This document shows positions 8,428 to 35,683 of a stretch of DNA of 35,683 nt, piece by piece (positions within the stretch are counted from its first letter, which is position 1; each line of letters starts with the position of its first letter). The notes below the pieces were generated by a model. That model did not search any database. It saw nothing but the letters and a program-made list of their open reading frames with translations, and had not been told where the DNA came from. The DNA lies in the NCBI GenBank assembly GCA_021831565.1, contig JAKBMM010000031.1:1-35683 (forward strand), read 5' to 3'. The position numbers and the translations under genes were made by a program. Source of the DNA: Planctomycetota bacterium. Lineage in GTDB: Bacteria > Planctomycetota > Phycisphaerae > WQYP01.

Positions 8428-8494
8428 AATCATATGGCAGTCAGCTTTGTATCATGGTATCCTATCACGTACTGGTTTGCAGGGACACAACTTT

Positions 8495-9451
8495 ATGGGC
8501 AATTCGTTGCAATTGATGAATCGATCCAGCCTGAGCAGCCATCCAAAACCAGCACGCATTTCCATCCCACCACGAATCACAGCGTTACAAGCAAAAAAGC
8601 TTATCCCCTTCGGTTGGTATGGGGGGAAGTTTTCGCACATGGACTGGTTGATGCCATTGCTGCCCCGATGTCACCATTATTGCGAACCGTTCGCCGGTTC
8701 AGGTGCCGTTTTATTAAACCGCCGCCCTTCAGCTATCGAGACATACAACGACATCGACGGCGAGGTGTGCAATTTTTTCCGTGTTCTGCGGGACCAGAAA
8801 AACGAATTGATTGAAGTCATCGCCTTGACACCCTTTTCTCGCGAAGAATTCGCCCTGGCATGCCAACTGGATCCTATACTGTCACCATTGGAACGAGCAC
8901 GCCGGTTCTATGTTCGCGCCCGCCAGGTACGCACGGGACTAGCCCAGACCGCTACCATCGGCCGATGGGCCAATTGCAAAAATACCAGCCGTAGCGGCAT
9001 GAGCGGAGTGATCAGCCGGTGGTTGGGCGGCGTTGAGATGTTGCCGGAAATTGCCAGCCGCCTGCTACGTATTCAAATTGAGAATCGTCCAGCTACTGAT
9101 GTAATTCGCCTGTATGACTCACCTGAGACACTGTTTTACTGCGATCCTCCGTATATTCACACTACCCGTGGAGATTCCAACGCATACGGTTACGAAATGA
9201 CCGATGACCAGCACCGCGAGTTAGCCTGTGTGCTCAATGCTGCGCAAGGCATGGTCGCTGTTTCAAATTATCCATGTTCATTGATGGACAAATTGTATCC
9301 CGCAGGCAAATGGTGGAAAACGCTGGGGCCGCTTAAGACCAATCACGCCACCAAGGGCTTACGCCGTGAAGCTCTCTGGACAAATTATGATCCTCGAAAA
9401 ATACGCGAAGGGCGGTCCGAATCAAATGGACACCTTTTCCAAGATACTTAA
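8495..9451 (+). CDS. D12-class DNA N6-adenine methyltransferase of a SacI-type RM system
   Basis: Transfers a methyl group from S-adenosylmethionine to N6 of adenine in a specific DNA site. In the 318-residue product the D12 signatures are FGWYGGK (39-45), the SAM motif PFAGSG (65-70) and the catalytic DPPY (217-220). Start choice: ATG 8495 has AGGG at 8481-8484 about 10 nt upstream; a TTG at 8447 would add 16 unconvincing residues and ATG 8516 is also possible. Its 3' end overlaps the endonuclease gene (start 9426) by 26 nt, which indicates a coupled RM operon. The reading frame is intact although the partner nuclease is broken, so it may act as an orphan methyltransferase. Base composition is visibly less GC-rich than neighbouring genes, consistent with transfer. 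The recognition site is inferred only from the SacI-like partner. Confidence 0.9.
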   Translation: MGNSLQLMNRSSLSSHPKPARISIPPRITALQAKKLIPFGWYGGKFSHMDWLMPLLPRCHHYCEPFAGSGAVLLNRRPSAIETYNDIDGEVCNFFRVLRDQKNELIEVIALTPFSREEFALACQLDPILSPLERARRFYVRARQVRTGLAQTATIGRWANCKNTSRSGMSGVISRWLGGVEMLPEIASRLLRIQIENRPATDVIRLYDSPETLFYCDPPYIHTTRGDSNAYGYEMTDDQHRELACVLNAAQGMVAVSNYPCSLMDKLYPAGKWWKTLGPLKTNHATKGLRREALWTNYDPRKIREGRSESNGHLFQDT

Positions 9452-9985
9452 CGATTCATACCGGCGTGTCTTGAGACGGGGAAACAAATCGTTTGTCTCC
9501 GATGCCAGCATTCGCCAACGGGTGGAGACTGTGGTGTTATGTTTGCGCAACCGTGCAGGCGTTCGCGCCTTGCTTGCCGGACTGCTGGCCAAAATTCAAT
9601 CGCCCGCAGTGGATATTCGCAAACCATATACCGACATTGCAGGCGCGACCGGTGGCGACTGCTACTCCGGGCGATTTTATGATGAACGTTATGTTCAGCG
9701 CCTTGCCGATTCGCCATATAGATTTCCGATCAACGCAACGACCGCATTTCTTACGCCCGGTTTTCGCACCAAAAACATCGTCCTGACAATGGATATCAAT
9801 CTGGAAGGTCGTCCTGCCGAGATGTACAAGGCATTGCTGGAACTCTTTGACTCCATCCAGAACAACCGCGTCACTGCTACCACGGTCATGGACGAATCAA
9901 TGCGATTGCTGGTCATTGAGCGCGACCAGCGCCAAGCCAGCATAGAAAAACTTGTCCGCGACATCAACCGCACCGCAGATCAACT

Positions 9986-9993
9986 GCCGCTAT
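9986..9993. repeat. Target-site duplication, left copy
   Basis: GCCGCTAT immediately before the left end of the inserted element; the identical octamer is at 10188-10195 immediately after its right end. Confidence 0.9.
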
Positions 9994-10187
9994 GGGCCTG
10001 TGACAGTTTCTGCAAAAGTGGCGTAATCAGCAAAAAAACGCCACTTTTTGCTTTGCAGAGCACTTTTTTTGTGATTTTTATGCCCCATAAACTTCAGATT
10101 CCACATTATTTCTTTGATTTTAAGCGATTTTTGGCCCGTGAACGGTTACCCCCAAACTTATCCGGTTGCAGAAACTGTCACAGGCCC
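9994..10187. mobile_element. 194-bp non-autonomous element (MITE) inside the SacI-type gene
   Basis: The ends are perfect 20-bp inverted repeats: GGGCCTGTGACAGTTTCTGC at 9994-10013 and its reverse complement at 10168-10187, flanked by the 8-bp duplication GCCGCTAT. No transposase is encoded. Just inside the left end is a second palindrome, 10012-10024 against 10038-10051, followed by T-rich sequence, which could terminate transcription on the plus strand. Near the right end CGTGAACGGTT (10137-10147) matches the edge of the unrelated intergenic repeat at 10816-10962. The terminal repeat matches 19 of 20 bases of the insertion-sequence end at 35559-35578. The 8-bp duplication fits several families (for example IS256, ISL3, IS1595), so no family is assigned. 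Confidence 0.92.
10012..10055 (+). terminator. Hairpin with T-run inside the inserted element
   Basis: GCAAAAGTGGCGT (10012-10024) pairs with ACGCCACTTTTTGC (10038-10051), one T bulged, across a 13-nt loop; a run of T lies at the 3' side of the core stem GTGGCGT/ACGCCAC. This resembles an intrinsic terminator on the plus strand and would further reduce expression of the 3' half of the endonuclease gene. Confidence 0.5.
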
Positions 10188-10195
10188 GCCGCTAT
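10188..10195. repeat. Target-site duplication, right copy
   Basis: GCCGCTAT, identical to 9986-9993, directly abutting the right inverted repeat of the element. Confidence 0.9.
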
Positions 10196-10815
10196 CGGCC
10201 GAAGAAATTGCCGGTCTGATAAGTCAGCACCTTGCATGTAAAAACGCTTCACGGTTGCCGGTACTGGTTGTCGCCGCGGCATATCAGGCGGCATCCAAAC
10301 GGCTGGGTGAAAAACCGCAACCACTACATGCGCATACCGCCGCCGACAAACAAACGGGCTCCATGGGCGACGTGGAAATAACTTTGATCAACGATAACAA
10401 TGTATTGACCGTGTATGAAATGAAACTCAAGGCTGTGACCATTAGTGACATCAACTTGGCCTTGGAAAAACTTAAAAGGCACACCGCCACCATACGCAAC
10501 TATATTTTTATTACCACCGAACCGATATCCCCCGAAGTGCTCCAATACGCTGCAGAAAAATACGATCAACTTGGTGGCACCGAAATAGCCATTCTGGATT
10601 GTCTCGGTTTTTTACGCCATTTTTTACACTTGTTCCATGGGCTACGAACTGATTTTATCAACGCCTACCAGAACCTGTTGTTAGCCGAGCCGGAAAGCGC
10701 AGTCAGCCAGGCACTCAAGGAGGCTTTTCTAACACTCCGAAAGGCGGCGGAAGGGAGCCTGTAGGTTTGGCGCTACTGTGTGGTATCCGTTTACTCACAG
10801 ATACATCGGAAGTAG

Positions 10816-10962
10816 CCGTTCACGGCGGCGCGGAAAAAGGCTGCGGGTTTCCACCACGCGGCGGCGTGGCTGGTACGTTGCGGTGATTTTGCGGTCCTGG
10901 CGCACCGGGAACACCCCCGCCCGTCGGGACGTACGCGGAAAAAACCAGGGGCGTGAACGGTT
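10816..10962 (+). repeat. Intergenic palindromic repeat, copy 2
   Basis: Second copy of the repeat at 584-730, in the same orientation. Its ends are inverted: CCGTTCACG at the left and CGTGAACGG at the right. The internal stem GTCCTGGCG/CGCC...CGGGAC is kept although bases differ from copy 1 (GGCAC/GTGCC there, GGCG/CGCC here), and GTACGT/ACGTAC forms an outer stem. It sits 51 nt after the broken endonuclease gene and about 95 nt before the GH3 gene, filling most of the 293-bp gap. The rest of the gap is AT-richer and contains a weak promoter-like TTGACG near the GH3 start. Confidence 0.72.
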
Positions 10963-11057
10963 GCCTTTGGGTTATAGGGTTATACCATGTGTCGCAGCAT
11001 AAAGATGTTATCATTTTTGACGGCCAAACTCCGTTTTATTGAACGGTAAGGAACACG

Positions 11058-35558: not shown

Positions 35559-35683
35559 GGGCCTGTGACAGTTTATGCAGCTTTTTTTCGTATCTTGGCC
35601 AAAACGTAAGCTGGGCGGTTGGCCCACAGCCGTTCCCAGCGGGCATCCTGGCTTTTCCACGCCGCCCGTAATGCGAGAATGGC
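35559..35683. mobile_element. End of an insertion sequence, cut by the window edge
   Basis: 35559-35578 reads GGGCCTGTGACAGTTTATGC, identical in 19 of 20 bases to the inverted repeat of the 194-bp element at 9994-10187 and in the orientation of a left end, so the element continues rightwards out of the window. An open minus-strand frame runs from the window edge to a stop inside the terminal repeat, as expected for a compact transposase gene. This is probably an autonomous relative that could supply transposase to the shorter element. Confidence 0.65.
35573..35683 (-). CDS. Possible transposase, C-terminal 36 residues only
   Basis: A frame open from the window edge to TAA at 35573-35575, which lies inside the terminal inverted repeat. 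The visible tail is Trp/Arg/Lys-rich, with ALRAAWKSQDARWERLW, and ends IRKKAA. I cannot assign a transposase family from so short a piece; the call rests on position inside an insertion-sequence end. In a GC-rich genome 36 open codons alone would not be significant. Confidence 0.4.
   Translation of the reverse strand, partial: AILALRAAWKSQDARWERLWANRPAYVLAKIRKKAA

What the first reader, a model, noticed from the sequence alone, without database searches (positions are those of the whole stretch)
9426..10764. SacI-type restriction gene broken by a 194-bp element, with exact frame restoration
The two halves of a SacI-family endonuclease lie in frames that differ by one base. Between them is a segment with perfect 20-bp terminal inverted repeats (9994-10013, 10168-10187) and an 8-bp duplication GCCGCTAT on both sides. 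Removing element plus one duplicate (202 bp, a multiple of three plus one) restores one continuous ORF reading DQLPL-SAEEI at the joint. All three observations agree, so this is a real insertion rather than an assembly error or programmed frameshift. The perfect repeats suggest it is recent.
Basis: partly seen in the sequence, partly recalled or inferred. Interest (0 to 1): 0.85.

Follow-up and report, generated by a model that had tools for sequence, protein, structure and literature searches.

The report
Jumping element broke a restriction gene
A 194-base mobile DNA element, pieced together from two older kinds of jumping element, has recently landed in a bacterial gene for a DNA-cutting defence enzyme and split it, and an identical copy has split a second defence gene in the same genome.

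Summary
A 194-bp element at 9994-10187 (perfect 22-bp terminal repeats, 8-bp target duplication) interrupts a restriction endonuclease gene at 9426-10764. Removing 202 bp restores a 378-aa frame. Two Planctomycetota MAGs carry uninterrupted homologues (78%, 77%) with one GCCGCTAT and the same residues at the joint. The element is a non-autonomous MITE: five identical full copies in the genome, each with its own 8-9-bp duplication, plus three cut by contig ends. Its ends match an ISKra4-family insertion sequence; its core is another MITE whose ends match those at IS66-family genes. So it is a chimeric MITE, presumably moved in trans. The gene shows dN/dS near 0.11 and no other damage, so the break is recent. 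'SacI-type' holds broadly (annotated homologues, weak RE_SacI hits, EcoT38I-like predicted fold), though the protein itself misses the Pfam model. The neighbouring adenine methylase is intact. Two unforeseen facts: an identical copy splits hmaB of an Hma defence system, and homologous endonuclease genes in two other genomes of the phylum are broken by other mobile elements. The mechanism is ordinary; the repeated hits on defence genes make it moderately interesting.

The parts
8450..9451 (+). intact DNA adenine (D12 class) methyltransferase, the modification partner; its end overlaps the start of the endonuclease gene
   Evidence: Pfam MethyltransfD12 E=1.7e-20; PADLOC MTase_II E=1.5e-54; 79.6% identical homologue next to the intact endonuclease in L070
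9426..9993 (+). 5' half of the SacI/EcoT38I-like restriction endonuclease gene (residues 1-189, mostly helical N-terminal part)
   Evidence: tblastn and alignment to uninterrupted homologues; AlphaFold model of homologue L070
9986..9993 (.). target site duplication, left copy GCCGCTAT
   Evidence: a single copy in the uninterrupted genes of L070 and L071
9994..10187 (+). 194-bp chimeric MITE: ISKra4-type ends around the core of a second MITE
9994..10015 (+). left terminal inverted repeat (22 bp), sharing its outer 16-20 bases with the ISKra4-family element
10012..10150 (+). core: second MITE lacking one of its own 14-bp ends; the other end CCGTGAACGGTTAC survives at 10136-10149
   Evidence: 96-98% identical to copies at C79, C37, C23, C32; terminal motif counted
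10151..10187 (-). 37 bp of ISKra4-type left end, including the right terminal inverted repeat 10166-10187
   Evidence: 97% identical to G432:C95:3585-3621
10188..10195 (.). target site duplication, right copy GCCGCTAT
10196..10764 (+). 3' half of the endonuclease gene (from residue 190), with the PD-(D/E)XK-type residues D248 and E264-M-K266 (restored numbering)
   Evidence: residues invariant in alignments A1 and A2; model strands E250-255 and E258-266
35559..35683 (+). right end of the full-length ISKra4-family element at which this contig stops; encodes the transposase C-terminus on the minus strand
   Evidence: same C-terminus (34 of 36 residues) in the complete 1541-bp element of L120

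Best explanation
The 194-bp element is a non-autonomous, MITE-type transposon with ISKra4-family ends, presumably moved in trans by an ISKra4-type transposase. It inserted recently, with an 8-bp target duplication, into a working type II restriction endonuclease gene of the SacI/EcoT38I-like kind. It shifts the frame at residue 189/190, between the N-terminal helical part and the catalytic domain. The endonuclease is therefore off and the adenine methylase next to it remains, which makes a newly solitary methylase. Shown by sequence: insertion, copies, duplications, empty sites, chimeric anatomy, intact methylase frame. Inferred: trans-mobilisation, loss of nuclease activity, continued methylation.
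For: Five identical full-length copies with exact 8- or 9-bp duplications. Uninterrupted homologues with a single GCCGCTAT and DQLPLSAEEI at the joint. The ends are shared with a 1541-bp element whose transposase matches NF033572 ISKra4 at E=2.1e-49. Full-length elements in this genome, recognised by pairing contig ends, give 9, 9, 9 and 8-bp duplications, as published for this transposase superfamily (PMC3942029). dN/dS is about 0.11 for the endonuclease and 0.09 for the methylase against L070. No second copy of the endonuclease in the genome.
Against: The body of the full-length ISKra4-type element is missing from this assembly (collapsed or unbinned), so the mobilising transposase in this cell is inferred from its ends. 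No reads were available. The NF033572 match of the relative (168 bits) is below the curated cut-off of 205. A restart inside the element (TTG at 10114) could in principle make a catalytic-domain fragment; no promoter was found there and no ribosome-binding site is evident by eye.
Confidence: 0.93

Rival explanations
1. Assembly chimera: a repeat was wrongly joined into the gene.
For: The element is repetitive (eight or more copies) and several contigs end inside it.
Against: A misjoin would not create an exact 8-bp duplication of the target, nor the frame-perfect empty site seen in L070 and L071. Four other copies each show their own 9-bp duplication.
Confidence: 0.03
2. Programmed frameshifting, or an intron-like segment removed after transcription, keeps the enzyme active.
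For: The element folds as RNA into a strong hairpin (z = -7.7), and one frame through the element is open.
Against: The duplication, the ends shared with a transposable element, and insertion of the same 194 bp at other sites including apparently intergenic DNA are those of a transposon. Relatives lack the segment. A strong fold is expected from long terminal inverted repeats alone.
Confidence: 0.02
3. An addition to the best explanation rather than a replacement: the break is not neutral drift; loss of defence genes was favoured, and MITE insertions that remove them rose in frequency.
For: Two of five complete copies hit defence genes, the endonuclease here and hmaB. Homologous endonuclease genes in two other genomes of the phylum are broken by other mobile elements.
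Against: Non-essential genes tolerate insertions, so defence genes are over-represented among survivors anyway; the numbers are small; one genome, no population data.
Confidence: 0.2

Closest known systems
ISKra4-family insertion sequences (p-MULT 4, Mutator superfamily; PMC3942029)
   Same: 8- or 9-bp duplications, and ends shared with a 1541-bp element whose transposase matches NF033572
   Different: The window element has no transposase; its middle comes from an unrelated MITE
MITEs carrying the terminal motif GTAACCGTTCACGG, found at IS66-family genes (NF033517)
   Same: Positions 19-157 of the element are 96-98% identical to such copies in the same genome; this terminal motif lies beside IS66-family transposase genes in the same genome
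   Different: The window element has lost one of that MITE's two ends and carries ISKra4-type ends instead
SacI (Pfam PF09566) and EcoT38I type II restriction endonucleases
   Same: Homologues match RE_SacI weakly; predicted fold of homologue L070 matches EcoT38I, E=1e-7; conserved D...ExK residues
   Different: Sequence is far from both; the partner is a D12-class adenine methylase; specificity unknown
MITEs and mosaic non-autonomous transposons of bacteria (MITEPsy1, PMC3189936; TIMEs, PMC4133298)
   Same: Short, without transposase, multicopy, moved in trans; mosaics have been reported
   Different: Different parent families; no report of this ISKra4-type/second-MITE combination turned up in the searches made

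Membership tests
MITE | under about 300 bp with terminal inverted repeats | tested here: met
   194 bp, 22-bp perfect repeats
MITE | target site duplications at independent copies | tested here: met
   8, 9, 9, 9, 9 bp at five sites
MITE | no transposase gene; ends shared with an autonomous element | tested here: met
   six-frame translation shows no transposase; ends shared with the 1541-bp element of L120
ISKra4 family (as parent) | ISKra4-family transposase in the element that shares the ends | tested here: met
   G513:C35 match to NF033572 at E=2.1e-49, though below the curated cut-off; own-genome contig ends encode nearly the same C-terminus
ISKra4 family (as parent) | duplications of 8 or 9 bp (PMC3942029) | tested here: met
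   9, 9, 9, 8 bp for paired ends of the full element
ISMich2 group of ISKra4 | transposase in two frames joined by a -1 frameshift | tested here: inconclusive
   L120 and L128 have two frames, but the second lies in the +1 frame at TTTTTCCCCCT
SacI restriction endonuclease family | match of the protein to Pfam PF09566 above cut-off | tested here: not met
   no match for the restored protein up to E=10; five of seven homologues tested give 13-16 bits against a cut-off of 19.3, best member of the alignment E=4.5e-6
SacI restriction endonuclease family | close homologues annotated as SacI family beside a methylase gene | tested here: met
   WP_113935231.1 and WP_179069564.1, next to DNA adenine methylase genes
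SacI/EcoT38I-like PD-(D/E)XK nuclease | fold and catalytic residues | tested here: met
   model of homologue L070 matches EcoT38I 7e8r, E=1e-7; D248, E264, K266 invariant
SacI restriction endonuclease family | cleaves GAGCTC | not testable with these tools
   needs enzyme assay

The most novel reading that the evidence does not exclude
A newly formed chimeric MITE (ISKra4-type ends around the core of another MITE) is spreading in this lineage, and selection has favoured those of its insertions that switch off DNA-targeting defence, so that both a type II restriction enzyme and an Hma system were lost in one episode.
Probability: 0.2. Interest if true: 0.65.

Novelty: new member of a known kind. 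Interest (0 to 1): 0.42.

Why it matters
It catches the moment at which a complete restriction-modification system becomes a solitary methylase. [quoted passage not shown] Here and in two other genomes of the same phylum the endonuclease has been struck by a different mobile element each time, which makes degradation directly traceable. The element also shows how a MITE core can be given new ends from another family and become mobile with them, and gives a marker (identical copies with fresh duplications) for recent activity in an apparently uncultured lineage.

Tried and rejected
Pfam and NCBIfam on the 36-residue transposase C-terminus: no hit; solved by testing the ISKra4 model on the class and comparing C-termini. 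tblastn of that fragment in plasmids: none. Terminal-repeat pattern in 392 genomes of the phylum: only the own genome at up to 1 mismatch; relatives of the transposase end were then found in the same family. Pfam on the C-termini encoded at the second MITE's longer copies: no hit; the ends were linked to IS66 by position beside NF033517 matches instead. PDB sequence search with the alignment: nothing. Promoter and terminator scan around the insert: nothing above chance. Literature on ISKra4-derived MITEs, SacI-family operons, and MITEs in restriction genes with IS66: nothing relevant.

Full report
WHAT IS THERE. The 8-bp duplication GCCGCTAT flanks the 194-bp element exactly. Leaving out the element and one duplicate (202 bp) gives a 378-residue open frame starting at 9426. 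With the element in place the 5' half runs on into the element and stops at 10241, and the 3' half lies in another frame.

THE EMPTY SITE. A scan of GTDB genomes found 28 relatives of the restored protein. The two closest are Planctomycetota MAGs at 78 and 77% identity (L070, L071); both are uninterrupted. Their DNA at the joint reads CTGCCGCTATC, with the eight target bases once, and their protein reads DQLPLSAEEI, as in the restored frame. An alignment of 17 sequences is colinear across the joint.

A RECENT EVENT. Nei-Gojobori distances between the restored gene and L070 give dN 0.142 and dS 1.24, a ratio of about 0.11; for the methylase beside it dN 0.128 and dS 1.39, about 0.09. The synonymous distances are near saturation, so the ratios are rough. 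The endonuclease was thus under purifying selection like its partner, and the 378 codons contain no other stop or frameshift. Together with the perfect repeats and the identity of all five complete copies this supports a recent insertion.

THE ELEMENT. Within the same genome (G000, 2.81 Mb, 86 contigs) the element occurs five times in full, 100% identical, and three more copies run off contig ends. The five duplications are GCCGCTAT here and GCAGACGGC, GGCGGGGCG, GCCTTGGGG, CTTTCTCCA elsewhere, that is 8 bp once and 9 bp four times. It encodes no transposase, so it is a MITE.

ITS PARENTS. The outer 16-20 bases recur at many contig ends, where they cap a longer element of which the assembly shows only about the first 98-127 bases. 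These ends come in two kinds, left and right. Four left/right pairs share a flanking 9-mer (three pairs) or 8-mer (one pair): they are the two sides of insertions of a full-length element that the assembler could not bridge. The right end encodes the last 36 residues of a protein; the window's own 3' end is one of these (35559-35683). The same C-terminus, 34 of 36 residues identical, is found in a complete 1541-bp element in another genus of the same family (G513, L120), with the same terminal repeats and a protein that matches the ISKra4 transposase model NF033572 at E=2.1e-49. Published members of this superfamily make 8- or 9-bp duplications (PMC3942029), as seen here. Positions 158-194 of the MITE are 97% identical to an ISKra4-type left end in G432. 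Positions 19-157, in contrast, are 96-98% identical to another MITE with different ends, GTAACCGTTCACGG, and at some copies exact 8-bp duplications; that terminal motif occurs 148 times in the genome at up to one mismatch, against 0 for the control, and lies next to IS66-family transposase genes. In the window element one end of this second MITE is missing and the other is intact inside. The element is therefore a chimera: a MITE core that was given ISKra4-type ends. The full chimera was found only in this genome among 28 genomes of its family, which again points to a young element. That the full-length element's transposase moves it in trans is an inference from the shared ends.

THE BROKEN GENE. 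The restored protein itself does not match Pfam RE_SacI. Fifteen of 19 homologues do; of seven scanned one by one, five match weakly and below the cut-off. Plasmid homologues at about 49-54% identity are annotated 'restriction endonuclease, SacI family' and lie beside 'DNA adenine methylase' genes. An AlphaFold model of the intact homologue L070 (mean pLDDT 77) matches EcoT38I, E=1e-7. The residues D248 and E264-M-K266 are conserved. The insertion falls after residue 189, between two helices and upstream of the catalytic strands. I conclude: a PD-(D/E)XK type II endonuclease of SacI/EcoT38I-like fold, recognition site unknown. The D12-class methylase 8450-9451 is intact.

A PATTERN BEYOND THE WINDOW. 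(1) A second identical copy of the MITE, at C62:39126-39319, interrupts hmaB of an Hma defence system; without element and one duplicate the frame is 1348 residues, and the neighbours include HmaA, HmaC, a Fic protein, a TIR protein and capH/capP-like genes. Hma is a predicted system (PMC8565338). The other three complete copies interrupt no recognisable long gene. (2) In the 392-genome phylum sample four genomes carry homologues of this endonuclease at 40% identity or more: the own genome; G315 (intact); G368, broken by an IS5-like element with 18-bp terminal repeats; and G123, broken by a serine-recombinase (IS607-like) element carrying a second, TnpB-like frame. The element types in G368 and G123 were judged by eye, not by a model. 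Among the GTDB loci L072 has a premature stop and L093 and L097 are frameshifted; no methylase in these loci showed a stop or frame change over the stretch compared. Loss of the nuclease with the methylase kept is expected on general grounds (PMC4176335 discusses why), but the same paper infers that solitary genes rarely arise that way.

VERDICT. Ordinary mechanism, well supported, with an unusual element and an unusual set of victims. Whether selection against defence plays a part cannot be decided from one genome; I give that 0.2.

Noticed in passing
G000:C62:39126-39319 (L197:9427-9620): An identical copy of the element interrupts hmaB of an Hma defence system (duplication GGCGGGGCG); the empty-site frame is 1348 aa.
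   Followed up: yes
L197:5871-9539, residues about 521-600 of the translation: The C-terminal part of hmaB contains an in-frame Y1_Tnp (REP-associated transposase-like) domain flanked by repeated GRASCP/GRPP-like peptides, which also appear in neighbouring frames; looks like in-frame insertion of palindromic repeats and their transposase gene.
   Followed up: partly
L059:1945-2840 (G368): Homologous endonuclease gene broken by an 896-bp IS5-like element with 18-bp perfect terminal repeats; methylase intact.
   Followed up: yes
L203 (G123:C185), about 400-2738 on the reverse strand: Homologous endonuclease gene broken by an IS607-like element (serine recombinase plus TnpB-like frame) at about residue 82.
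   Followed up: partly
L072:4001-5131: Premature stop at about codon 137 in a 69%-identical endonuclease; methylase intact. L093 and L097 carry frameshifts (could be sequencing errors).
   Followed up: partly
window 10812-10964: Degenerate copy of the second MITE type (GTAGCCGTTCACGG ... CGTGAACGGTTGC) just downstream of the endonuclease gene, without a clear duplication.
   Followed up: partly
L120:1400-1580 and the reverse strand of L128: The ISKra4-type transposase is split into two frames at TTTTTCCCCCT in two genera; the shift needed is +1, whereas -1 is published for the ISMich2 group.
   Followed up: partly
G000 contig ends C9/C60, C33/C64, C45/C51, C13/C65: Matching 8-9-bp duplications suggest that these contigs are neighbours joined by a collapsed ISKra4-type element; could be used to scaffold the assembly.
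   Followed up: yes
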